Shown here one piece after another: positions 17,115 to 30,873 of a DNA stretch of 64,000 nucleotides. A model generated the notes under the pieces. It did no database searches and was not told the DNA's origin. It saw only the letters and a list, made by a program, of their open reading frames with translations. The stretch spans positions 1 through 64,000 of the forward strand of contig CANKBG010000001.1 of NCBI GenBank assembly GCA_947479935.1. Direction: 5' to 3'. The position numbers were made by a program, and so were the translations under genes. Source of the DNA: Comamonadaceae bacterium (GTDB taxonomy: Bacteria > Pseudomonadota > Gammaproteobacteria > Burkholderiales > Burkholderiaceae_C). Position 1 is the stretch's first letter. Every line of letters starts with the position of its first letter.

Positions 17115-17132
17115 ACGTCATAAATAGTTCAT
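17115..17132 (+). promoter_or_regulatory. PhoB-box-like direct repeat upstream of the OlsB-like operon
   Basis: Two 7-base half-sites, ACGTCAT (17115-17121) and AGTTCAT (17126-17132), are separated by AAAT, giving the 11-base period of the E. coli Pho box (consensus half-site CTGTCAT with an A/T-rich 4-base spacer). It lies 73 bases before the GTG at 17206. I see no clear -10 at the expected ~10-base spacing. The rest of the 272-base gap is AT-rich with no other recognisable element. Confidence 0.6.
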
Positions 17133-17205
17133 AAAAAAGAAACACCACTGAAACCCAGAATGCAGATGATCAGTATCCAAGTTAACCATTACTTGGGAGT
17201 TAATC

Positions 17206-18045
17206 GTGAAAGAATTGCCAAGCCCTACTTTCCCGTTGTCGCCAATTTCCTTGCCTCGGGGGTCGCTTCATCGGGTTGATCCTACGCAAAGTAATCAAAC
17301 TTCAAACTCGGTCAATAAATCAGCCATACAAGTTAGCTGGGCAAAACATCAAGACGAAGTGAGAGAGGCGCAACGGCTTCGCTTTCAAGTATTCGCCAAT
17401 GAAATGGGAGCTATGCTTCCGGTTACTTTGCCCGCACACGACATTGATTTGTTTGATGATTATTGTGAACATCTCTTGGTGCGCGACATTGAGTCACAAA
17501 ATATCATTGGTACTTATCGGGTATTGACGCCAGTTCAGGCAAAGCGAGTTGGTGGAACCTATACAGATACTGAGTTTGATTTAACTCGCCTTCGCAGCGT
17601 TCGCGATCGCATGGTGGAGTTGGGTAGAAGTTGTGTTCATAAGAACCATCGCCATGGTGGTGTTATTTTGTCGCTGTGGAGTGCTTTGTTTGAGTTTATG
17701 TCTCGAAATCAACTTGACACCATGATAGGTTGTGCAAGTATTCCCATGCTTCACAACGGCATGATCAGTGGCGATGTAGCTGCAAGCGTTTGGCAGCAAC
17801 TGAAGATGAAATCATTGGCTTCCATCGAATTTCATGTTCGACCTAGATTGCCACTTCCGGTCGAAGATCTCAATGGACATTTGAATACAGAGCCTCCCGC
17901 TTTAATCAAAGGCTACATTCGATTAGGTGCCAAGGTGCTCGGTGCGCCTGCTTGGGATCCCGATTTCAATACTGCTGATTTACCCATGATGATGCGCGTT
18001 GAAGATTTGCCACGTCGCTATCGTAAACATTTTGAGAGCGCCTAA
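17206..18045 (+). CDS. GNAT-fold acyltransferase, OlsB/hemolysin-like (ornithine-lipid type N-acyltransferase)
   Basis: A 279-residue cytoplasmic acyltransferase of the COG3176 OlsB-like group. The fold marks are EVREAQRLRFQVFANEMGA near the N-terminus, FDDYCEHLLVRD, IIGTYRVLTP, MVELGRSCVH (core beta-strand and acyl-CoA/ACP loop), IGCASIPM, and LIKGYIRLGAKVLGAPAWD. OlsB adds 3-hydroxyacyl groups to ornithine, the first step to phosphorus-free ornithine lipids. The amino acceptor here is not shown by sequence, and no OlsA acyltransferase is in the window. Start: GTG 17206 with GGGAG at 17195-17199. Its TAA shares a base with the next ATG. A PhoB-box-like repeat lies upstream. Confidence 0.75.
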   Translation: MKELPSPTFPLSPISLPRGSLHRVDPTQSNQTSNSVNKSAIQVSWAKHQDEVREAQRLRFQVFANEMGAMLPVTLPAHDIDLFDDYCEHLLVRDIESQNIIGTYRVLTPVQAKRVGGTYTDTEFDLTRLRSVRDRMVELGRSCVHKNHRHGGVILSLWSALFEFMSRNQLDTMIGCASIPMLHNGMISGDVAASVWQQLKMKSLASIEFHVRPRLPLPVEDLNGHLNTEPPALIKGYIRLGAKVLGAPAWDPDFNTADLPMMMRVEDLPRRYRKHFESA

Positions 18046-18926
18046 TGCGATACGCTAAATATGATTCACAACAGGAGCAACCTTTTGAAGCTAATGTTTG
18101 GGTGACTCGATCAAGCACACATTTCAGATCCATTTTTATATCTGACTTACATCTGGGAACCCCTGGCTGCCAGGCTGAAGCTTTACTTAAGTTTTTGAAA
18201 ATATATACCTGCGACAACTTGTATTTGGTTGGTGATATTGTTGATGGTTGGCAGCTACGCCGGAAGTGGTATTGGCCGCAAAGCCATAACGATGTGATTC
18301 AGAAGTTGTTGCGTAAATCCAGAAAAGGTTGTCGAGTGATTTTTGTACCAGGAAATCACGATGAGTTTGGCAGGCATTTTTTGAATCATTCATTTGGGGG
18401 CATTGAAATTTGCGAAGAGGCAGTGCATGTCACAGCAGATGGCCGCAAGTTGTGGGTGATTCATGGTGATTACTTTGACGGTGTGATTCAATGTGCAAAG
18501 TGGCTTGCGTATGTAGGCGATAGTTTGTATGAATTCACATTGAAGTTAAACCGATACTTAAATCAACTCAGAGCTAGATTGGGTATGCCCTACTGGTCTT
18601 TGTCCGCATATTTAAAATTAAAAGTAAAAAAAGCTGTTAATTTCATTTCTGATTTTGAAGTGGCCGTTGCTAACGAAGCAAGAAATTTAGGCTATCAAGG
18701 CGTTGTTTGTGGGCATATTCACCATGCAGAAATTAGAAACATTGACGGTATTGTCTATTGCAACGATGGCGATTGGGTCGAAAGCTGCAGCGCACTTGTA
18801 GAGCATGCAGACGGCAGACTTGAAATCTTGAAATTCAATCCAAATGAAAATTCGAATGTTGTCCGTTCTAACAATTCCCTAGATGTTTCAGTAGAAAATC
18901 AATCTGATAAGTGGGTGTCGGTATGA
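18045..18926 (+). CDS. Metallophosphoesterase of the COG2908 group, probable PlcP-like phospholipase C
   Basis: A 293-residue calcineurin-fold phosphoesterase with metal motifs SDLHLG, GDIVDG, PGNHDE, VIHGDYFDG and CGHIHHAE. Automatic tools would call it UDP-2,3-diacylglucosamine pyrophosphatase. It differs from LpxH: it has GNHD where E. coli LpxH has GNRD, it is longer, and it is coupled to an acyltransferase and a glycosyltransferase under a Pho-type site. Relatives with this context are PlcP enzymes, which remove the head group of phospholipids under phosphate limitation to give diacylglycerol. It shares a base with the upstream stop and 4 bases (ATGA) with the downstream start. The PlcP role is inference from family plus neighbours. 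Confidence 0.7.
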   Translation: MRYAKYDSQQEQPFEANVWVTRSSTHFRSIFISDLHLGTPGCQAEALLKFLKIYTCDNLYLVGDIVDGWQLRRKWYWPQSHNDVIQKLLRKSRKGCRVIFVPGNHDEFGRHFLNHSFGGIEICEEAVHVTADGRKLWVIHGDYFDGVIQCAKWLAYVGDSLYEFTLKLNRYLNQLRARLGMPYWSLSAYLKLKVKKAVNFISDFEVAVANEARNLGYQGVVCGHIHHAEIRNIDGIVYCNDGDWVESCSALVEHADGRLEILKFNPNENSNVVRSNNSLDVSVENQSDKWVSV

Positions 18927-19948
18927 AGTTACTACTGATTACCGACGCTTGGATGCCACAAGTGAATGGTGTCGTCACAACCTTGGTTGAGTTGGTTCGG
19001 GAGTTGCACGGTGTTGGCTATGAAGTAGAAGTGGTTCACCCCAGCCTTTTTAAAACTCGACCCTGTCCAGGATATTCGGGGATTGATTTGGCGATTAACC
19101 CAAAAAGTAAATTAACTACTCTTTTTTCGACACAAAAATTTGATGTCATTCATATTGCAACAGAAGGTCCCTTGGGATGGGCGGCACGCGATATCTGCAT
19201 TCGGCGCCAATTGCCTTTCACAACTGCATTTCATACACGCTTTCCTGAAGTGCTGAAGGCTGCTTTGCATATTCCACTTTGGATGGGTTATGCACTTTTT
19301 CGTTATTTCCACAAGCCTTCCAGTGGCGTGCTGGTCCCGACTCAAGGTGTTTTGAATTTACTCAAAAAGCGTGGCTTTCAAAATTTGAAGCTATGGACTC
19401 ACGGCGTTGATACCAACTTGTTTAAATATGCGAGCGTCAGTTCGCTGGTTCCACAGTTGGCGCATTTGAAAAGACCCATCAGTGTCTTTGTTGGGCGTGT
19501 TTCATATGAAAAAAACATTGAAACTTTTTTGCAAATGCCCTTTGAAGGCAGCAAAGTCGTTTGTGGGGTTGGTCCTTTAGAAGAAAATTTGCAATTTAAA
19601 TATTCCGACATCACTTGGTTGGGGTTATTGCCTCGTACTGAATTGGCCAAAATATACGCTGCTGCTGATGTTTTTGTATTTCCTAGTCGAAATGAAACGT
19701 TCGGACTGGTGATGTTGGAAGCGATGGCCTGTGGGACCCCTGTTGCAGCATTTCCGGTGGATGGCCCACTGGAGGTCTTAACTGAAACATCAGGGCGGGT
19801 AAAAGGGGGTGTTTTGAACGAGGACCTTGCAGAGGCCGCTCGACAGGCACTTGCCGTACCTCGAGAATCTGCAAGGTCTAGGGCGTATGATTTCAGCTGG
19901 GCCAATGCAACGCAACTATTTATCAGCTACCTGAAGCCAATCGGCTAG
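18923..19948 (+). CDS. GT4-type glycosyltransferase, probable Agt-like glycolipid synthase
   Basis: A 341-residue GT-B fold enzyme of CAZy family 4 type. The N-terminal domain has DAWMPQVNGVVTTL, and the C-terminal nucleotide-sugar domain has FVGRVSYEKNIE and PSRNETFGLVMLEAMACG, the EX7E motif. I chose ATG 18923, which overlaps the phosphoesterase stop in ATGA, over a GTG at 18911. In the PlcP-Agt pairs described in Pi-limited bacteria, this enzyme glycosylates diacylglycerol to make phosphorus-free glycolipids; the coupling here fits that. It also resembles alpha-mannosyl/glucosyl transferases in general, so the donor sugar and acceptor are inferred. Confidence 0.75.
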   Translation: MKLLLITDAWMPQVNGVVTTLVELVRELHGVGYEVEVVHPSLFKTRPCPGYSGIDLAINPKSKLTTLFSTQKFDVIHIATEGPLGWAARDICIRRQLPFTTAFHTRFPEVLKAALHIPLWMGYALFRYFHKPSSGVLVPTQGVLNLLKKRGFQNLKLWTHGVDTNLFKYASVSSLVPQLAHLKRPISVFVGRVSYEKNIETFLQMPFEGSKVVCGVGPLEENLQFKYSDITWLGLLPRTELAKIYAAADVFVFPSRNETFGLVMLEAMACGTPVAAFPVDGPLEVLTETSGRVKGGVLNEDLAEAARQALAVPRESARSRAYDFSWANATQLFISYLKPIG

Positions 19949-19990
19949 TGATAGCACCATTAAAGGGCATTTCTGTACCTCTTCATCTTT

Positions 19991-20008
19991 TTGTCACAGA
20001 ATTGACAT
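19991..20008 (+). promoter_or_regulatory. PhoB-box-like direct repeat upstream of ppk
   Basis: Half-sites TTGTCAC (19991-19997) and TTGACAT (20002-20008) with an AGAA spacer, period 11. The site is 79 bases before the ppk ATG, in the 139-base gap after the glycosyltransferase, and would allow Pho-controlled ppk-sixA transcription separate from the upstream trio. Confidence 0.65.
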
Positions 20009-20087
20009 CAATATTCGGAAGAATGGCTTGACCCAAAGCCCTCACTATCAAAGAGGTTCAAGAAATTGACTGTAAAGGAGGTCTTCG

Positions 20088-22181
20088 ATGAGTAGGCCAA
20101 GTTCCTTACCCCAAAAAACCAACGAAGCATCTGAAATAGCCTTGCTAGACAGAGACCAAAGCATTTTGGCTTTCAATGAGCGCGTGCTTGATTGGGCAAA
20201 GCGTCCTGAGGTACCTCTGTTAGAACGGCTTCGCTATTTGTGCATTGTTTCGTCAAATTTGGATGAGTTTTTTGAAGTTCGAGCTGACCTCCACATGTCT
20301 GCCTTTAGGGCTAATGACAAAAAAGGGCTTTACAACACACACACGTTTGAAAATATTTATGAGTACGCACGGAGACTTGTGAATGAACAATATCGTTTGT
20401 ACAACGATGTCTTGCTACCAAAATTAGAAAAAGAAGGAATCAGAATTCTTTCTCATGGCGAGCGCAATCTAGTGCAACGCAAATGGGTGAGTGATTATTT
20501 TCATCGGGAAGTCAGACCTTTGCTGGTGCCAGTAGGCTTAGATCCTGCCCACCCGTTTCCTCAAGTCGCCAATAAATCACTGAATTTCATCGTCCAGTTA
20601 TCTGGCAAAGATGCTTTTGGTAAAACAAATGATATTGCCATTGTGAAAGTGCCGCGAGTATTGCCACGTGTCATTCCATTGCCCGGCAAGATTGCTAGCA
20701 AAGGTGTTTCTTTTGTGTTGCTGTCAAGTGTGATCAGAGCGCATCTTTCTGCTTTATTTCCGGGTAGACATGTTGGGCAATTTTCTCAGTTTCGAGTCAC
20801 CAGAAATTCAGATTTATCAGTTGATGAAGAGGACGTTGAAAATCTCAGAACAGCATTGCGTCGTGGTCTTCAGCATCGTCAATTCGGTCTAGCACTCCGC
20901 CTAGAGGTATCCGACAGTTGTGCAGGGCATTTGTCTGATTTTCTGCTGAAGCAATTTGGCTTGCCTGACAGGTCTTTGTTTCGAGTTGCGGGCCCCGTCA
21001 ATTTGGTTCGATTGGGCCAATTAATTGATCTTGCAGAGCACCCTAAATTGCTTTTTTCCCCTTACAAAGCAAGCTATCCAAAGCAGTTGACCAAAGGCGC
21101 CTCCGTGATGGCTCGAATGCGCCAAGGTGATATTTTGATTCACCAGCCTTTTGAAAGTTTTGATGGGGTGTTAGCTTTTTTAAAAGAGGCAGTTGACGAC
21201 CCACAGGTTCTTGCTATTAAACAAACCATCTATCGAACAGGCAGTGATCCAGCCATGATGAACCTGCTAAGGGAGGGCGTGCGCAGAGGTAAAGAGGTGA
21301 CAGTCGTCGTTGAGCTTAAAGCGAGATTTGATGAGGAGGCCAATATCAATTGGGCCGAACAATTGGAGTCTGTAGGCGCACAGGTGGTTTACGGCGTTGT
21401 TGGATTAAAAACCCATGCCAAGATGCTCTTGGTGACCCGAAAAGAGGGGCGAACATTAAAGCGCTATGGGCACCTTTCTACGGGCAACTACAACCCTCGA
21501 ACAGCCAAGCTTTATACAGATCTAAGCTACCTAACCTGCGATGTTGCCATGACGTCTGATATGGATCGTTTGTTTGTTCATCTGGCAAGTCCTTCGCGCT
21601 TAAGTCGCATGAGAAAATTGATCACAGCACCGTTTCATATGCAGCGAAAACTCATTGAGAAAATTGATGTGGTTGGAGCTGCTGCGTTGAAGGGATTGCC
21701 TGCACGTGTTGTTGTTAAGATGAATGCATTAACTGACCCAACCTTAATTCACGCTTTGATTCGAGCCGGTCAAAAAGGGGCTCAAATTGATCTGATTGTT
21801 CGCGGCGCTTGTATGCTGCCTGCTGGTGTTACCGGTCAAACTGACAACATTCGAGTGCGGTCTATTATTGGCCGATTTCTTGAGCATTCTCGAGTTTTCT
21901 ATTTCGAAGCAGGTGATGCTCAAGAGCTATTTTTGGCAAGTGCAGATTGGATGAGTCGAAATATGACGCGTCGAATTGAGCTGGGATGGCCAGTTAATGA
22001 CCCTATTTTGCGCAGACGGATTATTGATGAGTGCTTGCTTGCTTATTTGTACGACACCCGCAATGCCTGGACGTTAGAAGCTGACGGTCAATATCATCGC
22101 GTTGAGAAGAATGGCCAAAAGGTGCAAAGCGCGCAGGCTTTACTGATGGGTCAATATGTTGAGACACATCGTCATAAATAA
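20088..22181 (+). CDS. ppk: Polyphosphate kinase 1
   Basis: A 697-residue PPK1, which reversibly polymerises the gamma-phosphate of ATP into polyphosphate at the inner membrane. The N-terminal SILAFNERVLDWA and SSNLDEFFEVR segments are family signatures. The phosphorylated active-site His corresponds to His443 in KTHAK, with the second His462 in GHLSTGNYNPRTA, 19 residues apart as in E. coli PPK1; the other conserved His lies in FLEHSRVFYF. The start at 20088 has a very strong AAAGGAGGT site (20074-20082). A PhoB-box-like repeat precedes it and sixA follows 24 bases later, so it is probably made under phosphate stress. Confidence 0.96.
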   Translation: MSRPSSLPQKTNEASEIALLDRDQSILAFNERVLDWAKRPEVPLLERLRYLCIVSSNLDEFFEVRADLHMSAFRANDKKGLYNTHTFENIYEYARRLVNEQYRLYNDVLLPKLEKEGIRILSHGERNLVQRKWVSDYFHREVRPLLVPVGLDPAHPFPQVANKSLNFIVQLSGKDAFGKTNDIAIVKVPRVLPRVIPLPGKIASKGVSFVLLSSVIRAHLSALFPGRHVGQFSQFRVTRNSDLSVDEEDVENLRTALRRGLQHRQFGLALRLEVSDSCAGHLSDFLLKQFGLPDRSLFRVAGPVNLVRLGQLIDLAEHPKLLFSPYKASYPKQLTKGASVMARMRQGDILIHQPFESFDGVLAFLKEAVDDPQVLAIKQTIYRTGSDPAMMNLLREGVRRGKEVTVVVELKARFDEEANINWAEQLESVGAQVVYGVVGLKTHAKMLLVTRKEGRTLKRYGHLSTGNYNPRTAKLYTDLSYLTCDVAMTSDMDRLFVHLASPSRLSRMRKLITAPFHMQRKLIEKIDVVGAAALKGLPARVVVKMNALTDPTLIHALIRAGQKGAQIDLIVRGACMLPAGVTGQTDNIRVRSIIGRFLEHSRVFYFEAGDAQELFLASADWMSRNMTRRIELGWPVNDPILRRRIIDECLLAYLYDTRNAWTLEADGQYHRVEKNGQKVQSAQALLMGQYVETHRHK

Positions 22182-22205
22182 ATTTTAATATTTGAGTTAT
22201 TTGAA

Positions 22206-22667
22206 ATGGATTTAATTTTTTGGCGTCATGCGGAAGCACATGAGGCGACAGATGGCCAGGAAGACCTGTCGCGAGAATTAACGCATCGAGGTGAAAAGCA
22301 AGCTGCAAAACTAGGGCAGTGGTTAGACCGTCAATTGCCAGAGGGTGTTAGAGTCATTAGCAGTCCAGCCTTAAGAGCAGAACAAACTGCGAAGGCACTA
22401 GGAAGGAAGTACAAACTCAAAACGGAGTTGCTCCCCGATGCATTGCCTTCTGATTTGCTGGATGCCATAGGTTGGCCAAATTCAAAGATGTCGGTTGTTG
22501 TTGTGGGACATCAACCCGTGATGGGACAATGCATATCTTTTTTACTAGGCTTTTCCCGCGGAGAGTGTGCAGTTCGCAAGGGCTCTGTTTGGTGGCTTCG
22601 TAGCCGTATTCGTGATGGCATTCCGCAAACTGTGGTGGTCAGTGTTCAAACGCCAGAACTTATCTGA
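22206..22667 (+). CDS. sixA: Phosphohistidine phosphatase SixA-like
   Basis: A 153-residue histidine-phosphatase-fold protein. The RHA motif places the phospho-acceptor His at residue 8 (FWRHAEAHE). The second conserved segment ISSPALRAEQTAKAL supplies the phosphate-binding Arg, and VVGHQPVMG the late catalytic His. SixA enzymes remove phosphate from His of HPt or PTS-type proteins. It follows ppk by 24 bases in the same direction. Its 3' end overlaps the convergent ppx gene by 22 bases, so the two transcripts would be complementary at their ends. SixA next to ppk is common in betaproteobacteria; its target here is unknown. Confidence 0.85.
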   Translation: MDLIFWRHAEAHEATDGQEDLSRELTHRGEKQAAKLGQWLDRQLPEGVRVISSPALRAEQTAKALGRKYKLKTELLPDALPSDLLDAIGWPNSKMSVVVVGHQPVMGQCISFLLGFSRGECAVRKGSVWWLRSRIRDGIPQTVVVSVQTPELI

Positions 22668-24163
22668 AACTGAAGTTGCCAGTTTGTTTTGAGCCATGCT
22701 TCACATTCTTCCTGTAGCAAGTGAGCTGATTGCGGCCACTGCTGAGCCCAATTCTTTTTACAACTGATTACAAACCCTGCATCAACTTCTGCACGTTTGA
22801 AAGTCAATCCTTTAAGATCAGGTTCTCGTCTTGCATGGCAGAGAATGGCAGCAAGCCTAAGGCTAATCAGTTGGCACACAAAGTCTTCGTCTCTCAATTC
22901 AGGATCAAGTTTTTTTAACTTGCCGCGATGACCCAAAATTAATTGACTCAGTCTGTGTAATTCCGTCATAGAAAAGCCAGTAAGGTCTGCGTTGTCCAAA
23001 ATGTAAGCGCCGTGCTTGTGAAAGTCGCTGTGCGAAATTCGAGTGCCAATTTCCAGCAGTTGCGCAGCCCAAGCCAACTTGTTTTCTAACCGAATAATGC
23101 GCCCACTTTTTTTTCCTTCTACGATATGCAAATTTTGGAAAAGATGCAATGCAGTTCGAGTCACACGGTCTGCTTGCGCCATGTCTACAGCAAAACGGTT
23201 GGCAAGAGCTGCCACCATGGAGCTTCTTAAGTCGGTGGTTTCGTCTCTCTCAAGTCGGTCCAACAAATCTTGCAAGACACCTTGTCTCAATGCGCCTTGA
23301 GCCGCTTCCATCTCCTCAATCCCTAGCAAGTCAAATAAAGCAAATAAGATTGACAAACCTCCCCCGATGACGGGTTTTCTGTCGTCTTTAACACCGTCTA
23401 ACTTGAGGGTATCAACATGCCCTATTTTGATCAGTTTTTCTTTTAACCAATCAAGCCCTTCGCGCGTAATTTTTCCGGCAGGCCAGCCCTCTGCAGTAAG
23501 AACATCAACGACGGCGCCCACTGTTCCTGAAGAACCGTAAGCAATGTCCCAAGAGTTTCTAGGATAGAGGTTGAGAGCTTCGTCTAAAACAGCTTTTGCG
23601 GCAATCTCAGCCTTCGTGAAAGCTGAGGAAGTGAATTGACCGCTGCCGAAATATTTCATGGACCATTTAACGCTGCCCACTCGGTACGACTCCATTACGC
23701 TGGATTTGTAGCCTCTTCCCAATACCATCTCTGTAGAGCGTCCGCCAATATCAATCACGAGTCTTTTTTCATTGGATTGGGGAAGTCCGTGAGCAACTCC
23801 TAAATAGATGAGCCGTGCTTCTTCTTTTCCAGAAATGACTTCAATGGGAAAGCCAAGAATGGTGGTAGCTTGAATCAGAAAAAAATCTCTATTTTTAGCC
23901 TCTCTCAGTGTTTGTGTGGCAACAGCCCGAACATGTTCTAAGCTGAATCCTGCTAGCCTCTCTGCAAATCTGGACAGGCAATCCCAGCCTCGTTGCATGG
24001 CCTCTTTGGAAAGCATGCGTTCTGCATCCAAGCCATTTCCTTGCCGAACGGTTTCTTTGAGATAGTCAACGCGCCTAATTTGGCCATCTTCAAAAACACC
24101 AATTTCGAGGCGAAAGCTGTTTGAGCCCAAATCGACTGCGGCGACAAGTTGACCGTTTTGCAT
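22646..24163 (-). CDS. ppx: Exopolyphosphatase, Ppx/GppA family
   Basis: A 505-residue ASKHA-fold phosphatase that releases phosphate from polyphosphate chain ends, and may also act on pppGpp. The phosphate-1 loop AAVDLGSNSFRLEIG begins near residue 9, EEARLIYLGVAHG and the IDIGGRSTEMVLG phosphate-2 loop follow, and the C-terminal HD-like helical domain holds ALHLF and HSDFHKHGAYI. It is on the minus strand between ppk-sixA and pstS. Facing ppk from the opposite strand, it is not part of the plus-strand Pho transcripts. Confidence 0.93.
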   Translation of the reverse strand: MQNGQLVAAVDLGSNSFRLEIGVFEDGQIRRVDYLKETVRQGNGLDAERMLSKEAMQRGWDCLSRFAERLAGFSLEHVRAVATQTLREAKNRDFFLIQATTILGFPIEVISGKEEARLIYLGVAHGLPQSNEKRLVIDIGGRSTEMVLGRGYKSSVMESYRVGSVKWSMKYFGSGQFTSSAFTKAEIAAKAVLDEALNLYPRNSWDIAYGSSGTVGAVVDVLTAEGWPAGKITREGLDWLKEKLIKIGHVDTLKLDGVKDDRKPVIGGGLSILFALFDLLGIEEMEAAQGALRQGVLQDLLDRLERDETTDLRSSMVAALANRFAVDMAQADRVTRTALHLFQNLHIVEGKKSGRIIRLENKLAWAAQLLEIGTRISHSDFHKHGAYILDNADLTGFSMTELHRLSQLILGHRGKLKKLDPELRDEDFVCQLISLRLAAILCHARREPDLKGLTFKRAEVDAGFVISCKKNWAQQWPQSAHLLQEECEAWLKTNWQLQFQISSGV

Positions 24164-24303
24164 TGAAAGTACTGCTGTTGGAGTGATACCGATATTCTGT
24201 GTCTATTTTTTGTCATTTTGATGACGTGCTGTAGCTTGATTTGTGACTCTGCCCTTACGATCTACAAGTTTATACAGGGGTGCAAAACCGTAAATTGGAA
24301 AAT

Positions 24304-24418: not shown

Positions 24419-25441
24419 ATGCTAAAGATCAAAACTTGGATGGCCGCTTTGGGCTTATCCGTGCTCTCAGTGTCCGCAATTTCAGCCGAAATTACGGGCG
24501 CTGGCGCTACTTTCCCTTTCCCAATTTATGCCAAATGGGCCGAAGCCTACAAAGCTAAAACTGGCACCAGCATGAATTACCAATCCATTGGTTCTTCTGG
24601 TGGTATCAAGCAAATTAAAGCCAAAACTGTTGACTTTGGTGCTACAGATGCCCCTGTAAGTTTTGAAGATCTTGAAAAAGACGGAATGGTTCAATTCCCA
24701 GCCATTATTGGTGGTGTTGTACCCGTTGCCAATCTTGAAGGCATTAAGCCTGGTCAAATCAAATTGAGTGGCGAATTGTTGGCCGATGTCTTCGCAGGTG
24801 TCATTCCAAAATGGAACGACAAGCGCATTGCTGATATGAACCCAGGCTTAGCTTTACCTGATGCCCCCATCACGGTGGTGCACCGAGCAGACGGTTCTGG
24901 AACCACTGCTGTATTTACAGACTATTTGGCTAAAGTTAATGCAAACTGGAAGTCGACTGTAGGTGCGGGTGCCGCAGTGAAGTGGCCTGCCGCCTCCTCA
25001 GTGGGTGGCAAGGGTAATGAAGGTGTTGCAGCTAATGTGAGTCGCATTAAAAATGCGATTGGGTATGTCGAATTTGCGTATGCAAAGAAAAATAACATGA
25101 CGCATTTGAACTTGCGTAATCAGGCGGGTCAGTTTGTTGCCCCTGATGACGAAACTTTTGCGGCAGCTTCTGCCAGTACAGACTGGTCTAAAGTGCCAGG
25201 TATGGGGATCTATTTGACCAACGCGCCTGGTGCGAAATCGTGGCCCATTACTGGTGCTTCTTTCATCTTGATGTACAAAGATCCAGCCAATAAAGCGAAT
25301 TCTGTTGAGGTGATGAAATTCTTTGAATTTGCTTTCAAAGAAGGCAAAAAAATGGCCGCTGATTTGGAATATGTACCCATGCCTGACGCCACGACTGATT
25401 TCATTCGCAAAAACGTATGGAATAAAATCAACGTGAAATAA
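24419..25441 (+). CDS. pstS: Phosphate ABC transporter substrate-binding protein PstS
   Basis: Periplasmic phosphate receptor, 340 residues. Signal peptide of about 22 residues ending VSA-ISA-E, then the family start EITGAGATFPFPIYAKWAE. Phosphate-contacting segments are visible: GSSGGIKQIKAKTVDFGATDAP, and HRADGSGTTAVFTDYL. Length matches the family. It is the first gene of pstSCAB-phoU-phoB-phoR, with a PhoB-box-like array upstream and a 38-base gap to pstC. Confidence 0.96.
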   Translation: MLKIKTWMAALGLSVLSVSAISAEITGAGATFPFPIYAKWAEAYKAKTGTSMNYQSIGSSGGIKQIKAKTVDFGATDAPVSFEDLEKDGMVQFPAIIGGVVPVANLEGIKPGQIKLSGELLADVFAGVIPKWNDKRIADMNPGLALPDAPITVVHRADGSGTTAVFTDYLAKVNANWKSTVGAGAAVKWPAASSVGGKGNEGVAANVSRIKNAIGYVEFAYAKKNNMTHLNLRNQAGQFVAPDDETFAAASASTDWSKVPGMGIYLTNAPGAKSWPITGASFILMYKDPANKANSVEVMKFFEFAFKEGKKMAADLEYVPMPDATTDFIRKNVWNKINVK

Positions 25442-25479
25442 AGTGTGAACTAAATTTCAAATATTGATAGAAATTTGAC

Positions 25480-26460
25480 ATGAACAATGCAGACGAATTG
25501 ATGACCTCGCACCGGCAGAGCGTATTGCGATGGCAGCGTTGGCAAGATTTTTTCTTTGAAAAAACAACCTTGGTATTCGCTTTGTCAACTTTGGTGGCAC
25601 TAACGGGCATCATCGCCTCATTGTTTGTGAGCTCTTTGCCGGTTCTAGAGACTTTTGGTCTGAAGTTTTTTTACACCATTGAGTGGGATATCATCAATTC
25701 TGAATTTGGTGGGATGATTGCTATTTTTGGGACAGTGGTCACGGCCTCCATCGCCATTTTGATTGCTTTACCGCTTAGCTTTGGTATTGCAGTTTTCTTG
25801 ACCGAAACATGTCCTATGAGATTGCGGCGTCCGTTGGGGACTGCAATTGAATTGCTAGCGGCGGTTCCGTCAATTATTTATGGCATGTTTGGCTTGTTTA
25901 TTTTCGCGCCACTCTTTGCTGAGTTTGTTCAGCCAGCGTTGGCTTCTACTTTGGGTCAAATCCCTGTCGTTGGAATTTTGTTCACGGGTGCCTTCAACGG
26001 TATTGGTATCTTGGCAGCTGGACTCATTCTGGCCATGATGATCTTGCCGTTCATTGCCTCAGTCATGCGTGACGTGTTTGAGATTGTGCCACCCATATTG
26101 AAAGAGTCTGCCTACGGAATTGGTTGTACCACTTGGGAAGTGGTTACCAAAATTGTGTTGCCCTATACCAAAACGGGAGTTGTGGGTGGGGTCATGCTAG
26201 GCTTAGGTCGCGCCTTGGGTGAAACCATGGCTGTTACCTTTGTGATTGGTAACGCGCACAAATTATCGCCCTCTTTATTCTCACCCGGAAATTCTATTGC
26301 TTCTACTCTGGCCAATGAATTTGGCGAGGCGGAACCTGGCCTGCACTATTCATCTTTGTTTGCACTTGCTTTGGCATTATTTGTAATCACGCTCATCGTG
26401 TTATCACTAGCCAAATGGATGTTGATGCGCGCTGAGGCAAAAAAAGGGCTTAGAACATGA
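25480..26460 (+). CDS. pstC: Phosphate ABC transporter permease PstC
   Basis: Inner-membrane permease, 326 residues, about six membrane segments. Marks include the [25 protein letters not shown] segment start, [17 protein letters not shown], the coupling-loop region [15 protein letters not shown], and [18 protein letters not shown]. It ends in ATGA, overlapping the pstA start by 4 bases, so the two channel subunits are translated together. Confidence 0.96.
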
Positions 26461-27314
26461 GTAATATGGACCCTAGCATTTACGCTCGACGCAAACGTGC
26501 CAATTTAATTGGGCTTGTACTCTCAATGTCTGCGATGGCAATTGGCCTTGGTTTTCTTTTGTGGATATTGAGCATTCTGCTTTTAAAAGGATTTTCCGCG
26601 CTGCACTTGTCCATGTTCTTGGAAAGTACGCCTGCCCCCGGATCTGAAGGCGGTGGTTTAGCCAATGCTATTGTTGGTAGCCTGATGATCGTTTTTTCAT
26701 GTTCTTTGGTCAGTACACCCATTGGTGTTTTAGCTGGCGTCTACCTATCCGAGTACGGTGAAAAAAGTCGCTTGGCCTCCATCACTCGATTTGTGAATGA
26801 CATCATGTTATCAGCACCTTCCATAGTGATCGGATTGTTTGTGTATGCATTGGTGGTTGTACCCAGCAAACATTTTTCTGGTTGGGCAGGTACTGTGGCT
26901 TTAACTTTAATTGCCATACCCGTTGTAGTGCGAACAACAGAAAACATGCTGAAATTGGTGCCAGTGAGCTTGCGTGAGGCTGCTTTCGCCTTGGGCGCAC
27001 CAAAATGGAAAGTATCCACATCTGTTGTGTTGAAGGCGGCCCGCAGTGGCGTGATGACGGGCTTGTTGCTTGCCTTGGCCAGAGTAAGTGGTGAAACAGC
27101 ACCACTTTTATTTACAGCACTCAATAATCAATTTTTTAATGCTGACATGAACAAACCCATGGCAAATCTGCCAGTGGTTATTTTCCAATTTGCAATGAGT
27201 CCTTATGACAACTGGGTGAACTTGGCCTGGGGTGGCGCATTGCTAATTACTTTGACTGTTTTGGCTTTGAACATTATCGCTCGCGTTGTGTTCCGAGAAA
27301 AAGTAGCTGCTTAA
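26457..27314 (+). CDS. pstA: Phosphate ABC transporter permease PstA
   Basis: Second channel subunit, 285 residues. Recognised by [27 protein letters not shown], the coupling-loop region [15 protein letters not shown], and [15 protein letters not shown]. The ATG lies within the ATGA overlap with pstC and pstB follows after 16 bases. It forms the PstCA pore together with PstC. Confidence 0.96.
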
Positions 27315-27330
27315 AATTAATCTTCTACCT

Positions 27331-28107
27331 ATGAATTCAAATACTGAATCAAAAGAATCGATCTTGGAAGTTCGTGATCTGAACTTTTATTACGGCGCTT
27401 TCCAAGGCTTAAAACACATCAATCTAAATATTCTAAAAAACACAGTGACGGCATTCATTGGTCCATCAGGCTGTGGCAAGTCAACGCTTTTGCGAGCCCT
27501 CAACAGGATGTACGACCTCTACCCCGGCCAGCGTGCAGAGGGTGAAATATTTTTTGATGGCAAAAATATTCTTGATCCGAAACAAGATTTAAATTTGTTG
27601 CGCTCTCGAATTGGCATGGTGTTTCAAAAGCCTACGCCTTTTCCCATGTCAATCTACGACAACATTGCATTTGGCGTGCGCTTGTATGAAAAGCTCTCCC
27701 GAAGCGACATGGACGATCGCGTCGAATGGGCTTTGCAGAAGGCTGCTATTTGGGAAGAGGTAAAAAACAAACTGAACCAAAGTGGTTTGTCTTTGTCGGG
27801 TGGCCAGCAGCAGCGATTGTGCATTGCCCGTGGCATTGCTGTTAAACCTTCCATTTTGCTATTGGATGAACCCACTTCAGCGCTCGATCCAATATCAACT
27901 GGTAAAGTTGAAGAATTGGTGCACACTTTAAAGAGTGAATACACTGTTGTCATGGTGACTCACAACATGCAGCAAGCTGCGCGTGTATCTGATTTCACCG
28001 CTTATATGTATCTGGGGGAGCTTATGGAGTTCGGTGAAACTGATCAAATTTTCATGAAGCCAGCACGCCAAGAGACTGAAGACTACATCACTGGCCGATT
28101 CGGCTAA
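27331..28107 (+). CDS. pstB: Phosphate ABC transporter ATP-binding protein PstB
   Basis: Cytoplasmic ATPase of phosphate import, 258 residues. Walker A is GPSGCGKS, signature [14 protein letters not shown], Walker [14 protein letters not shown], and switch His in [13 protein letters not shown]. The N-terminal [14 protein letters not shown] and the [17 protein letters not shown] insert are typical of PstB. In known systems PstB also takes part in phosphate sensing through PhoU and PhoR, both encoded just downstream. Confidence 0.97.
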
Positions 28108-28123
28108 TTAGGAGCTCTAGAAA

Positions 28124-28822
28124 ATGGATAAACATATATCAAGTCAATTTGACAATGAATTAGGCAGTGTTTCAAGCCGTGTCCTTGAGCTAGGTGGCTT
28201 GGTTGAGTCTCAAATTAGGCATGCTGTGTTAGCACTATCTCAATTCAGCAATGAAGTGGCTGATAAAGTGATTGCTGCTGAAGCCCAAGTCAATTCAATG
28301 GAAGTTGAAATTGACCGTGATTTATCTTCCATTATTGCCAGACGTCAGCCAACAGCACGTGATTTGAGATTACTTATTGCAATCTCTAAAATTACGGCCA
28401 ATTTGGAACGAGCGGGTGATGAGGCTGAAAAAATTGCCCGCATGGTGAAAACCATTGGCGCCAGTGGTAACGCTCGATTCTTGCCTGCGTCTGAATTGAG
28501 AATTGCTTCTGACTTGGCTTCCGGACTGCTTCGTAAAGCTCTGGACTCATTTGCCCGACTGGATGTGACAGAGGCGGTGAACATTTTGAGAGAAGACGAT
28601 TTAATTGATGCAGAGTTTGATGGATTTGTTCGCAAGTTGGTAACTTACATGATGGAAGACCCTCGGACAATTTCTGCTAGTTTGGATTTACTTTTTATTG
28701 CCAAAGCCATTGAGCGTATTGGCGACCATTCAAAAAATATTGCTGAATTCATCATTTATGTGGTGAAGGGAGCTGATGTCCGACACATAGCTTTGGCCGA
28801 TGTGGAGTCAGCCGTTAAATGA
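28124..28822 (+). CDS. phoU: Phosphate signalling protein PhoU
   Basis: A 232-residue helical-bundle protein built of two PhoU repeats with metal-binding acidic motifs (ERAGDEAEKIA in the first half, ERIGDHSKNIAEF in the second). PhoU links PstSCAB occupancy to PhoR, holding the kinase in phosphatase mode when phosphate is plentiful. It starts 16 bases after pstB and overlaps phoB by 4 bases (ATGA). Confidence 0.95.
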   Translation: MDKHISSQFDNELGSVSSRVLELGGLVESQIRHAVLALSQFSNEVADKVIAAEAQVNSMEVEIDRDLSSIIARRQPTARDLRLLIAISKITANLERAGDEAEKIARMVKTIGASGNARFLPASELRIASDLASGLLRKALDSFARLDVTEAVNILREDDLIDAEFDGFVRKLVTYMMEDPRTISASLDLLFIAKAIERIGDHSKNIAEFIIYVVKGADVRHIALADVESAVK

Positions 28823-29535
28823 GAAATCTTCCCCGCATCTTGATTGTTGAGGATGAACCCGCCATTGCGGAATTAATTGCAGTTAACTTGCGACACAATG
28901 GATTTCAGCCTATTTGGGCCATGGATGGTGTCACAGCTCAAAAAGAACTCGACGATGTGCTACCAGACGTCATTTTGCTAGATTGGATGTTGCCTGGTGA
29001 AAGTGGCTTAATGCTTTCCAAAAAGTGGCGATCTAACCCACGAACAAAAGAGATCCCCATCATCATGTTGACCGCTAGAAGCGAGGAGTCTGACCGCGTT
29101 GCTGGACTTGATTCGGGCGCAGACGATTACATTGTTAAACCTTTTTCTACCAAAGAGTTGTTGGCACGTGTTAGAGCAGTTCTTCGAAGAAGAAAGCCTC
29201 AGCAATCAGGCGGCCGGATTCAGTTGAATGATTTAATTCTGGATGCAGATACTCACCGAGTGACTTTTCAGGAACAGCCTTTAAAGCTAGGACCTACTGA
29301 ATTTAAATTGCTTCAATATTTCATGACGCATAAAGAGAGGGTTCACAGTCGTGGACAACTCTTAGACAGAGTTTGGGGCGATCATGTGTTCATTGAAGAA
29401 CGGACTGTGGATGTTCATGTCAAACGCTTACGTGAGGCATTGGGCGCTGCGGGTGCCATGGTGGAAACTGTGCGAGGTGCAGGGTACAGGCTTACAGAAA
29501 TGGTTTCTGTTCAATCACCGCAGTCTGAACATTAA
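28819..29535 (+). CDS. phoB: Phosphate regulon response regulator PhoB
   Basis: A 238-residue OmpR/PhoB-type regulator. Receiver domain with the acidic pair near residues 11-12, phospho-acceptor Asp55 in LLDWMLPGESG, and KPF at the end of the domain. The C-terminal winged helix has LGPTEFKLLQYFM and the recognition-helix region ERTVDVHVKRLREAL. It would bind the 11-base-period repeats found upstream of the OlsB-like gene, ppk, pstS, phoX and the porin. Overlaps phoU by 4 bases; phoR follows by 12 bases. Confidence 0.96.
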   Translation: MRNLPRILIVEDEPAIAELIAVNLRHNGFQPIWAMDGVTAQKELDDVLPDVILLDWMLPGESGLMLSKKWRSNPRTKEIPIIMLTARSEESDRVAGLDSGADDYIVKPFSTKELLARVRAVLRRRKPQQSGGRIQLNDLILDADTHRVTFQEQPLKLGPTEFKLLQYFMTHKERVHSRGQLLDRVWGDHVFIEERTVDVHVKRLREALGAAGAMVETVRGAGYRLTEMVSVQSPQSEH

Positions 29536-29547
29536 GACTAAAAATTC

Positions 29548-30873
29548 ATGTTTTCACGGTTTTTAGTCCTGGTCTTTTGGATGGCTGTTTCGGCTGTGGT
29601 CGGTTATTGGTATGCTCAAATTTATGGCGCTCTGGTAGGTGCGCTTTTAATTACATTCATCGCAAACTTAAAGAATCTTTGGCGCGGCCAAAAAATCTCG
29701 GAATGGCTACGCCATAGCACCGTTCAAGATCCTCCTGTTTTAGGTGGCTTGTGGGGAGATCTTATAGATCGTTTAAGAAGAATTATGAATGATCAGATAA
29801 AACAAACTGAGTCGCATCAGCAGCGTTTGCAAGACTTTCTTTCAGCTATTCAAGCTTCGCCCAATGGGGTTGTATTGCTTGACCCTGAAGGACGAATTGA
29901 ATGGTGTAACCTAACAGCAGCGCAGCATTTGGGGTTCGATTCGAAACGCGATTTGATGCAGCACGTGGTTCATTTAGTTCGTGACCCTGTATTTAATAAA
30001 TATTTTTCTCAAGAAAATCACGAAGGTGAAGTCATCATCGAAGGTCGTTCTGCTTCTTTCTTAAAAAGTGTGAAGTTGTCAGTCCAACTGCATGCGTATG
30101 GTGAAAATAGACAATTACTCTTGACGCGCGATGTCACTGCATTGGCTCAAGCAGACGCCATGCGTCGAGATTTTGTGGCCAATGTTTCTCATGAAATTCG
30201 CACACCTTTGACTGTGCTGAGTGGATTCATAGAGACATTGCAAACTCTTAATTTGAATCAAGATGAACGTACCAAGTTTCTTGAACTCATGGAGACACAA
30301 GCTGGCCGGATGCAAGGATTGGTTAATGATCTCCTGATACTTTCGCAGCTTGAGGGTAGTCCCATGCCTCAGATGACTGAAACATTTTCATTGGTAGATC
30401 TCATGAGTCCTGTGGAGTCGGAAGCCAGAGGCTTATCTCAAACGCATTTTTCAATTCTTGAAGCTCCTCAAATTTTGAAGTTTGAAGCCCCTCCAACTTG
30501 GAGCCTAATTGGCTCGCGACAGGAAATTTACAGTGCGGCCTCTAACTTGGTCAATAACGCTGTTAGATATACACCAGCCGGTGGCCAAGTTGATTGTGTC
30601 TGGTCTCAATTGCCTGATCAGCGACTTCAATTTTCTGTGCAAGACACGGGCCCAGGTATATCGACCGAGCATTTGCCTCGTTTAACGGAGCGTTTTTACC
30701 GCGTTGACCGCTCTCGTTCGCGTGAGTCTGGTGGAACGGGTCTTGGCCTAGCAATTACAAAGCATGTGATGCAAAGACATGGCGGCGAGTTGAAAATTGA
30801 GAGTGAACTGGGCAAAGGATCTAAATTTATTTTAATATTCCCAGCTTCCAGGACAAGTTTGAATCACCAGTGA
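29548..30873 (+). CDS. phoR: Phosphate regulon sensor histidine kinase PhoR
   Basis: A 441-residue membrane-anchored kinase. Two N-terminal hydrophobic segments (residues ~3-45) without a large periplasmic domain, a PAS domain (about 95-190), a HisKA domain with phospho-acceptor His215 in NVSHEIRTPLT, and an HATPase domain with NLVNNAVRYTP (N box), DTGPGIS (G1) and GTGLGLAI (G2). The lack of a periplasmic sensor domain is normal for PhoR, which reads phosphate through PstSCAB-PhoU. Last gene of the pst-pho operon, followed by a terminator. Confidence 0.95.
   Translation: MFSRFLVLVFWMAVSAVVGYWYAQIYGALVGALLITFIANLKNLWRGQKISEWLRHSTVQDPPVLGGLWGDLIDRLRRIMNDQIKQTESHQQRLQDFLSAIQASPNGVVLLDPEGRIEWCNLTAAQHLGFDSKRDLMQHVVHLVRDPVFNKYFSQENHEGEVIIEGRSASFLKSVKLSVQLHAYGENRQLLLTRDVTALAQADAMRRDFVANVSHEIRTPLTVLSGFIETLQTLNLNQDERTKFLELMETQAGRMQGLVNDLLILSQLEGSPMPQMTETFSLVDLMSPVESEARGLSQTHFSILEAPQILKFEAPPTWSLIGSRQEIYSAASNLVNNAVRYTPAGGQVDCVWSQLPDQRLQFSVQDTGPGISTEHLPRLTERFYRVDRSRSRESGGTGLGLAITKHVMQRHGGELKIESELGKGSKFILIFPASRTSLNHQ

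What the first reader, a model, noticed from the sequence alone, without database searches (positions are those of the whole stretch)
17115..22667. Pho-linked lipid-remodelling module: OlsB-like, PlcP-like and Agt-like genes coupled ahead of ppk
Three genes with one-base or ATGA overlaps encode an OlsB-like N-acyltransferase, a COG2908 metallophosphoesterase and a GT4 glycosyltransferase. A PhoB-box-like repeat precedes them and the ppk-sixA/pst-pho genes follow. PlcP (phospholipid to diacylglycerol) plus Agt (diacylglycerol to glycolipid) is a known phosphate-saving pair in several proteobacteria. Adding an OlsB-like enzyme in the same transcript would give two phosphorus-free lipid classes from one operon. 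The metallophosphoesterase would usually be misannotated as LpxH. Function is inferred from family, coupling and the upstream site.
Basis: partly seen in the sequence, partly recalled or inferred. Interest (0 to 1): 0.8.

Follow-up and report, generated by a model that had tools for sequence, protein, structure and literature searches.

The report
Phosphate-saving lipid operon, freshwater Limnohabitans
A freshwater bacterium carries, next to its phosphate-starvation genes, one operon that probably makes two kinds of phosphorus-free membrane lipid; the parts are known, but I found no earlier description of them joined in one operon, or of the altered active site of one enzyme.

Summary
olsB-like (17206-18045), plcP-like (18045-18926) and agt-like (18923-19948) genes overlap by 1 and 4 bases, upstream of ppk-sixA, ppx and pst-pho genes. 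The genome is an unnamed Limnohabitans MAG.

The phosphoesterase falls with PlcP, not LpxH, and a separate LpxH exists. An OlsA-like acyltransferase is present; its homologues sit beside OlsB in 8 of 14 OlsB-bearing other-family genomes.

olsB directly precedes plcP in 25 of 26 plcP-bearing Limnohabitans genomes and 23 of 56 family genomes with both genes. A glycosyltransferase hit is present in 26 of 26 plcP-bearing versus 2 of 9 plcP-lacking Limnohabitans genomes, so two branches seem to share one promoter. One relative has an in-frame olsB deletion that keeps the Pho-box region and plcP-agt.

Corrections: the window's Pho box is weak alone (9/14), credible only by comparison; ppk has its own Pho-like box; the glycosyltransferase carries Glu and His where characterised Agt (GTcp) has catalytic Asp256 and lipid-contacting Arg163.

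Products and regulation are inferred, not shown. This is a new variant of a known kind.

The parts
17115..17132 (+). Pho-box-like 11-base-period repeat ACGTCATAAATAGTTCAT, 91 bases before the olsB start
   Evidence: 9/14 to CTGTCATNNNNCTGTCAT, not significant alone (p 0.22); best site on the coding strand at -83 to -91 in 20 of the 56 upstream regions kept; conserved island in alignment A1
17177..17199 (+). leader inverted repeat CCAAGT-8-ACTTGG running into the GGGAG ribosome-binding site; candidate hairpin
   Evidence: 1 match in window, 0.10 expected; seen in the window's subclade and not in most other orthologous leaders; consensus fold; weak covariation only
17206..18045 (+). olsB-like GNAT N-acyltransferase, 279 aa
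   Evidence: PF13444 1e-32; best NCBIfam models are the two OlsB equivalogs (148 and 144 bits, below cut-offs 350 and 320); GNAT fold with acyl-homoserine-lactone synthases and FeeM among the best PDB matches
18045..18926 (+). plcP-like metallophosphoesterase, 293 aa, with GNHDE and GHIHHA motifs
   Evidence: tree and motifs; 54% to the S. meliloti and 58% to the P. aeruginosa homologue
18923..19948 (+). agt-like GT4 glycosyltransferase, 341 aa; Glu258 and His160 at the positions of GTcp Asp256 and Arg163
   Evidence: 46% to the P. aeruginosa Agt1 homologue
19980..20008 (+). Pho-box-like overlapping repeats before ppk
   Evidence: 10/14 at 19991 and 9/14 at 19980
20088..22181 (+). ppk, polyphosphate kinase
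   Evidence: ORF; homologue annotated polyphosphate kinase 1 after plcP in Mitsuaria
22206..22667 (+). sixA-like phosphohistidine phosphatase
   Evidence: ORF; name read from the translation, no family search; follows ppk in relatives
22646..24163 (-). ppx/gppA phosphatase, convergent
   Evidence: homologue annotated Ppx/GppA in Mitsuaria
24199..24227 (+). overlapping Pho-box-like repeats before pstS
   Evidence: two sites of 10/14
24419..30873 (+). pstS, pstC, pstA, pstB, phoU, phoB, phoR
   Evidence: ORFs; names read from the translations, no family search; matches in the same order in relatives

Best explanation
The three genes form a PhoB-controlled operon that lowers the cell's phosphorus quota along two parallel branches. 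Branch 1: PlcP strips the headgroup from phospholipids, leaving diacylglycerol, and the GT4 enzyme glycosylates it to a phosphorus-free glycolipid. Branch 2: the OlsB-like enzyme acylates the amino group of an amino acid, most likely ornithine, with a hydroxy-acyl chain, and an OlsA-like acyltransferase encoded elsewhere (G000:C5:33187-33918) adds the second chain to give an ornithine lipid. Shown by sequence: gene order and overlaps, PlcP rather than LpxH identity, a separate LpxH, presence of an OlsA candidate, conservation across genera, and co-occurrence of PlcP with glycosyltransferases of this kind. Inferred: PhoB control, substrates, products, and the phosphorus saving.
For: PlcP clade separate from LpxH at 100* with different motifs; own LpxH on another contig. 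olsB directly upstream of plcP in 25 of 26 plcP-bearing same-genus loci and in 23 of 56 family genomes having both genes, the window's genome excluded; in 18 of those 23 an Agt hit follows plcP within about 75 bases (coordinates). Same-genus genomes: a GT hit in 26 of 26 PlcP-bearing and 2 of 9 PlcP-lacking (Fisher 5e-6, relatedness not corrected). OlsB homologues sit beside OlsA-like homologues in 8 of 14 OlsB-bearing other-family genomes and in Kitasatospora, Streptomyces, Methylomagnum and Paracoccus records. Pho-box position conserved. G031 keeps the Pho-box region and an in-frame 37-codon remnant of olsB ending in the plcP start, with plcP-agt present. In Pseudomonas putida BIRD-1, PlcP, OlsA and OlsB rise under Pi stress in a PHO-dependent way from separate loci (PMC5082522, passages).
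Against: The window's own Pho box is weak. OlsB and OlsA candidates score far below the curated NCBIfam cut-offs, though so do betaproteobacterial homologues in OlsB-OlsA pairs. The OlsA-like gene also occurs in 13 of the searched genomes without an OlsB hit, and one genome with OlsB (G015, 84% complete) has no OlsA-like hit, so it may mainly be a PlsC. The GT4 has Glu and His where GTcp has Asp256 and Arg163; D256E cost GTcp over 90% of its activity (PMC8231724 section 9). In 33 of 56 family genomes with both genes, olsB and plcP are not adjacent. 6 of 26 same-genus plcP loci lack an adjacent agt. No expression or lipid data.
Confidence: 0.76

Rival explanations
1. The metallophosphoesterase is LpxH, a lipid A enzyme, and the cluster has nothing to do with phosphorus saving.
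For: Public records annotate homologues as UDP-2,3-diacylglucosamine diphosphatase (16 of 20 listed); weak LpxH model hits (48 and 42 bits).
Against: Scores are far below cut-offs 134 and 190; the genome has an LpxH at C7:74010-74660 with 224 bits (cut-off 134), though 182 of 190 on the stricter model; tree split at 100* and different motifs.
Confidence: 0.01
2. The OlsB-like enzyme acylates another amine (glutamine, lysine, glycine or similar), or makes a free N-acyl amino acid, so the second lipid is not ornithine lipid.
For: Only 32% identical to the S. meliloti OlsB homologue and below the OlsB cut-offs; its predicted fold also resembles FeeM, an N-acyl amino acid synthase, and acyl-homoserine-lactone synthases. 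Aminolipids with other headgroups are known in marine bacteria (PMC6298996 and PMC8319176, search listings with abstract starts only).
Against: The two OlsB models are its best hits by about 100 bits over the next model, and homologues are paired with OlsA-like genes.
Confidence: 0.17
3. The GT4 does not act on diacylglycerol but on a polysaccharide or LPS intermediate; it sits beside plcP by chance.
For: GT4 is a broad family; two residues important in GTcp differ.
Against: It groups with PlcP-linked Agts, including the P. aeruginosa Agt1 homologue at 46%; catalytic His and the Trp equivalent are kept; a GT hit is present in 26 of 26 PlcP-bearing and 2 of 9 PlcP-lacking same-genus genomes.
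Confidence: 0.1
4. The operon is expressed regardless of phosphate and serves general lipid turnover; its place beside pst-pho is coincidental.
For: Window Pho box is not significant alone.
Against: Conserved site position and footprint; linkage to ppk or pst genes recurs in relatives and in other families (L077, L078).
Confidence: 0.08

Closest known systems
plcP-agt lipid-remodelling operon (Pelagibacter, Erythrobacter, Methylosinus trichosporium OB3b, Pseudomonas aeruginosa PA3219-PA3218)
   Same: plcP directly followed by a GT4 gene, Pho box upstream, phospholipid to diacylglycerol to glycolipid logic (PMC4796936, PMC9239053, PMC8528852; sections and passages seen)
   Different: here an olsB-like gene precedes plcP with overlapping codons; the GT4 has Glu258 and His160 at GTcp Asp256 and Arg163; ppk and pst-pho genes follow
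OlsB/OlsA ornithine lipid synthesis
   Same: full-length GNAT homologue whose relatives are often paired with OlsA-like acyltransferases
   Different: OlsB and the OlsA candidate lie on different contigs; OlsB is coupled to plcP instead; 32% identity to the S. meliloti homologue
Pho-dependent co-induction of PlcP and OlsAB in Pseudomonas putida BIRD-1
   Same: both phosphorus-free branches switched on together (PMC5082522, passages)
   Different: there the genes are at separate loci (PPUBIRD1_0974/0975 and PPUBIRD1_1390); here one operon
LpxH (UDP-2,3-diacylglucosamine pyrophosphatase)
   Same: same calcineurin-like superfamily; usual annotation of this gene
   Different: separate clade and motifs; the genome has its own LpxH

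Membership tests
PlcP | falls with functionally studied PlcP and apart from LpxH in a tree | tested here: met
   100*; the S. meliloti and P. aeruginosa reference rows were identified by gene context (beside a LuxR regulator and an AHL synthase; before a GT), partly from recall
PlcP | metallophosphoesterase metal-site motifs (D-H, GD..D, GNHD, HGD, GHIH) | tested here: met
   DLHL34, GDIVDG63, GNHDE103, HGDYFD140, GHIHHA223 (motif list recalled)
PlcP | hydrolyses phospholipids to diacylglycerol | not testable with these tools
   needs enzyme assay
LpxH | score over curated cut-off and GNRDF motif | tested here: not met
   47.8 of 134 and 42.4 of 190 bits; GNHDE instead of GNRDF
OlsB | score over the curated NCBIfam OlsB cut-offs | tested here: not met
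   148.2 of 350 and 143.9 of 320; the S. meliloti homologue reaches 511 and the Paracoccus one 441, while the beta, gamma and actinobacterial homologues tested also fall short, so the models seem to fit alphaproteobacteria
OlsB | Acetyltransf_5 domain complete | tested here: met
   PF13444 positions 1-102 of 102, 113 bits over 22.4
OlsB | an OlsA partner exists | tested here: inconclusive
   candidate at C5:33187-33918, best NCBIfam hit OlsA 125.7 of 300 bits; homologue adjacent to OlsB in 8 of 14 OlsB-bearing other-family genomes but also present without OlsB
OlsB | acylates ornithine | not testable with these tools
   needs assay or lipidomics
Agt/GTcp diacylglycerol glycosyltransferase | UDP-sugar motifs GRVAXEKN and FPSXTDTFG | tested here: inconclusive
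   GRVSYEKN and FPSRNETFG: close, but Glu for Asp256
Agt/GTcp diacylglycerol glycosyltransferase | catalytic dyad His104-Asp256 | tested here: not met
   His104 kept, Glu258 for Asp256; D256E lost over 90% activity in GTcp, but the Agt2-type rows and MshA carry Glu
Agt/GTcp diacylglycerol glycosyltransferase | groups with PlcP-linked Agt in a tree | tested here: met
   48-row clade at 100* with the Agt1 and alphaproteobacterial rows, quick method; GTcp itself was not in the tree
Pho regulon | PhoB box upstream | tested here: inconclusive
   weak in the window, conserved in position in relatives
Pho regulon | PhoB-dependent induction at low phosphate | not testable with these tools
   needs expression data

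The most novel reading that the evidence does not exclude
The operon is a one-promoter, two-branch membrane-replacement switch of freshwater Comamonadaceae, and its glycosyltransferase is a new specificity class of diacylglycerol glycosyltransferase. A His at the lipid-contacting Arg163 position is found in the rows of this clade that I read, and an Asp-to-Glu change at the catalytic carboxylate, which cost the marine enzyme over 90% of its activity when made there, followed inside the clade. The enzyme then probably makes a glycolipid with a different sugar or geometry than known Agts.
Probability: 0.3. Interest if true: 0.6.

Novelty: new variant of a known kind. Interest (0 to 1): 0.43.

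Why it matters
Limnohabitans is an abundant, widely distributed freshwater lineage (PMC13101498, passage), while the bacterial PlcP studies in my search listings concern mainly marine bacteria, rhizobia, methanotrophs and pseudomonads. An operon that joins both phosphorus-free lipid branches gives a genetic marker for lake metagenomes, predicts which lipids lake bacteria should make when phosphate runs out, and warns that the key gene is filed as lipid A synthesis in public annotation. Natural losses (olsB cut in one genome; plcP and glycosyltransferase absent in others) offer ready-made comparisons.

Tried and rejected
LpxH identity: rejected. OlsF-type bifunctional enzyme: rejected, only one PF13444 gene is over the cut-off and its frame is only 291 aa. 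A weak second PF13444 hit (C66) looks like a thioesterase-GNAT fusion (my reading), not a second OlsB. The other PF00149 proteins of the genome (C2, C8) were not hit by the PlcP protein; only the C8 ORF was read, the C2 one not. PDB search by sequence found LpxH as nearest to PlcP (E 2e-4) and nothing useful for OlsB. The idea that the GT acts on the OlsB product was set aside, because same-genus genomes with OlsB but no PlcP hit (G002, G010, G018, G019; three of them incomplete, G018 99%) have no GT hit. A statistical case for the window's own Pho box failed. Literature searches for the three-gene arrangement: (one search listed 30 of 45 papers, two of three).

Rows dropped before counts: one search left out homologues under 55% identity, upstream regions under 200 bases and copies with the same last 60 bases; one search left out duplicate loci and two distant rows; and one search used chosen subsets (42 and 38 rows) of the loci held. 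A correction to my notes: the notebook entry says Agt adjacent in 21 of 26; recounting one search gives 20 of 26 (absent in L018, L022, L023, L028, L032, L038).
Full report
What is there. The window's genome (G000, 2.79 Mb, 79 contigs, 93.8% complete) is of the same genus as G001, whose olsB coordinates coincide with those of Limnohabitans sp. MMS-10A-178, so I take it as Limnohabitans, a freshwater betaproteobacterium. Three genes lie head to tail: an olsB-like GNAT acyltransferase (17206-18045), a metallophosphoesterase (18045-18926) and a GT4 glycosyltransferase (18923-19948), with TAATG and ATGA overlaps. ppk follows after 139 bases with its own Pho-like repeat, then sixA, convergent ppx, and pstSCAB-phoU-phoB-phoR (names of these read from the translations).

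PlcP, not LpxH. The phosphoesterase scores 48 and 42 bits on LpxH models with cut-offs of 134 and 190, while another gene of the genome (C7:74010-74660) scores 224 and 182. In a tree of 42 chosen rows (39 different, quick method) the 36 PlcP-type rows and 6 LpxH rows are two sides of one branch at 100*; three of the LpxH rows are copies of the genome's own gene, and the tool warned of long branches. The 36 PlcP rows have GNHDE and the 6 LpxH rows GNRDF. The reference rows for S. meliloti and P. aeruginosa were recognised by their gene neighbours (gene names partly recalled). Public plasmid records label homologues UDP-2,3-diacylglucosamine diphosphatase in 16 of the 20 listed (32 records matched in all).

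OlsB and OlsA. The first gene is the only PF13444 gene over the cut-off in the genome. Its best NCBIfam models are the two OlsB equivalogs, at 148 and 144 bits, below cut-offs. Five homologues from beta- and gammaproteobacteria and an actinobacterium, four of them paired with OlsA-like genes, score 128-185 bits, while the two alphaproteobacterial rows exceed a cut-off. Of three PF01553 acyltransferases, the one at C5:33187-33918 has OlsA models as best hits (126 and 108 bits, cut-off 300). In the 24 sampled genomes of other families, OlsB homologues occur in 14, and in 8 of these the homologue of the C5 gene is next to OlsB on the same strand within about 220 bases (G036, G039, G046, G048, G049, G055, G057, G059). 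Against this, the C5-type gene is found in 56 of 60 genomes (own included), 13 of them without an OlsB hit, and it is missing in one genome that has OlsB (G015), so it may double as PlsC. An AlphaFold2 model of OlsB (mean pLDDT 77.9, residues 1-38 below 50) matches a GNAT acetyltransferase first, with the acyl-homoserine-lactone synthases RpaI and LasI and the N-acyl amino acid synthase FeeM at ranks 5-8.

Conservation of the block. Of 35 other same-genus genomes, PlcP is found in 26 and OlsB in 29: both in 25, PlcP only in 1 (G031), OlsB only in 4 (G002, G010, G018, G019), neither in 5 (several are incomplete MAGs). In the 26 PlcP loci, OlsB is directly upstream in 25 and Agt directly downstream in 20. 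In the four OlsB-only genomes olsB is followed directly by ppk. Among 33 loci from named genome records, some of them the same genomes, plcP follows olsB directly in 27 and ppk does in 4 (L101, L114, L118, L123); the other two are L112 (no such neighbour found) and L122 (plcP about 4 kb away). They include Ramlibacter, Rhodoferax and Hydrogenophaga. In a sample of 79 other genomes of the family (78 further genera plus G013), PlcP occurs in 58 (E 1e-60) and OlsB in 67 (E 1e-40); both in 56, of which 23 have olsB directly before plcP with gaps of 6-249 bases. In 18 of these 23 an Agt hit follows within about 75 bases, in G071 after about 810, and in 4 (G068, G109, G113, G125) there is none at E 1e-70. 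In the other 33 of 56, the genes are apart. Outside the family the block occurs in G042 (L076), and looser clusters in G055 (L077), G037 (L078) and G047 (L079).

Two modules. A GT hit (the Agt, or a second GT at 35-40% identity that I take as Agt2-like; these same-genus copies were not placed in a tree) is present in 26 of 26 PlcP-bearing same-genus genomes and 2 of 9 PlcP-lacking ones (G005, G024); the six with no adjacent agt have the second type elsewhere (Fisher 5e-6, not corrected for relatedness). The four OlsB-only genomes have no GT hit. OlsB also co-occurs with PlcP, less strictly (25, 1, 4, 5; Fisher 0.002; in the family sample 56, 2, 11, 10, Fisher 1e-5). So the GT travels with PlcP rather than with OlsB, as expected if diacylglycerol is its acceptor, and the operon joins two separable pathways. 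G031 is a natural test: its olsB is cut to a 37-codon in-frame remnant (start and end of the protein), still ending at the plcP start codon, and the Pho-box region is kept, as if promoter and coupling are maintained for plcP-agt.

Regulation. The window site ACGTCATAAATAGTTCAT matches the consensus (as quoted in PMC8528852, passage) at 9 of 14 positions and is not significant alone. Among 56 upstream regions of OlsB orthologues kept for the test, the best site beat shuffles at p 0.05 in 23, and in 20 the best site was on the coding strand at -83 to -91; the regions are related, so these counts overstate independence, and 33 of 56 are not significant. An alignment of 14 upstream regions (some identical) shows a conserved island TTGTCACAAATATTTCAT. 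I hold PhoB control as likely, not shown.

The odd glycosyltransferase. [quoted passage not shown] D256E lost over 90% of activity (PMC8231724 section 9). By motif and alignment with other Agts (GTcp itself was not at hand) the window enzyme has His104 and Trp326 but Glu258 and His160. In a 53-row tree (quick method) the Comamonadaceae-type Agts are one clade (34 rows, 100*) in which 33 have Glu and the first branch, Ramlibacter, has Asp; the 14 other rows of the Agt1-type clade have Asp, and the 5 Agt2-type rows have Glu. In 29 further family loci, 18 have Glu, 5 Asp and 6 were not read by my motif. His at the Arg163 position is seen in the 7 clade rows shown and in 24 of the 29 loci; 2 of those (G085, G096) have Arg and 3 (G110, G094, G079) were not read. 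The position is not strictly fixed elsewhere: the P. aeruginosa Agt1 row has Lys and G048 (L084) has His. The simplest reading is a diacylglycerol glycosyltransferase with a reworked donor and acceptor site.

What is known. plcP-agt operons and their lipids are established (PMC4796936 section 13 and passages; PMC9239053 section 6 and passages; PMC8528852 passages). Section 13 of PMC4796936 describes six types of plcP neighbourhood and names no olsB. PHO-dependent abundance of PlcP, OlsA and OlsB from separate loci is reported for Pseudomonas putida BIRD-1 (PMC5082522 passages). I found no description of the olsB-plcP-agt operon in nine searches.

Verdict. It is a new variant of a known kind, more widespread than the finding suggested, with an unexpected active-site change in one enzyme. 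Products and regulation remain to be measured.

Noticed in passing
window 18923-19948: GT4 enzyme carries Glu258 and His160 where characterised GTcp has catalytic Asp256 and lipid-contacting Arg163; in the tree the Asp-to-Glu change lies inside the Comamonadaceae-type clade, after Ramlibacter.
   Followed up: yes
window 17167-17208: Leader inverted repeat before olsB that pairs with the ribosome-binding site and reaches the start codon; 95% of cells paired in 15 related sequences, but only one pair with changes on both sides. Possibly a translational control element.
   Followed up: partly
L075:5239-5352 (genome G031): Natural in-frame internal deletion of olsB leaving a 37-codon remnant, with the Pho-box region and plcP-agt present.
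   Followed up: yes
L057, L071, L072, L073, L101, L114, L118, L123: olsB followed directly by ppk with no plcP or agt between (L057 and L101 are from the same genome): plcP and agt can be absent together.
   Followed up: partly
L044 (Mitsuaria sp. 7 plasmid): plcP directly before ppk and ppx on a 263 kb plasmid, without olsB or agt beside it.
   Followed up: no
L126 and L130 (Pseudomonas aeruginosa plasmid records): Plasmid-labelled records carry a plcP-agt1 pair and, in another record, an agt2-like gene beside a phospholipase C locus.
   Followed up: no
L013:520-1380 (G000:C66): 286 aa protein joining a hot-dog thioesterase-like half to a GNAT half (domain reading is mine).
   Followed up: no
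L077 (genome G055): Two different glycosyltransferases flank plcP, with olsB-olsA divergent and phoR-phoB-phoU-pstB alongside: a fuller cluster of the same kind in another family.
   Followed up: no
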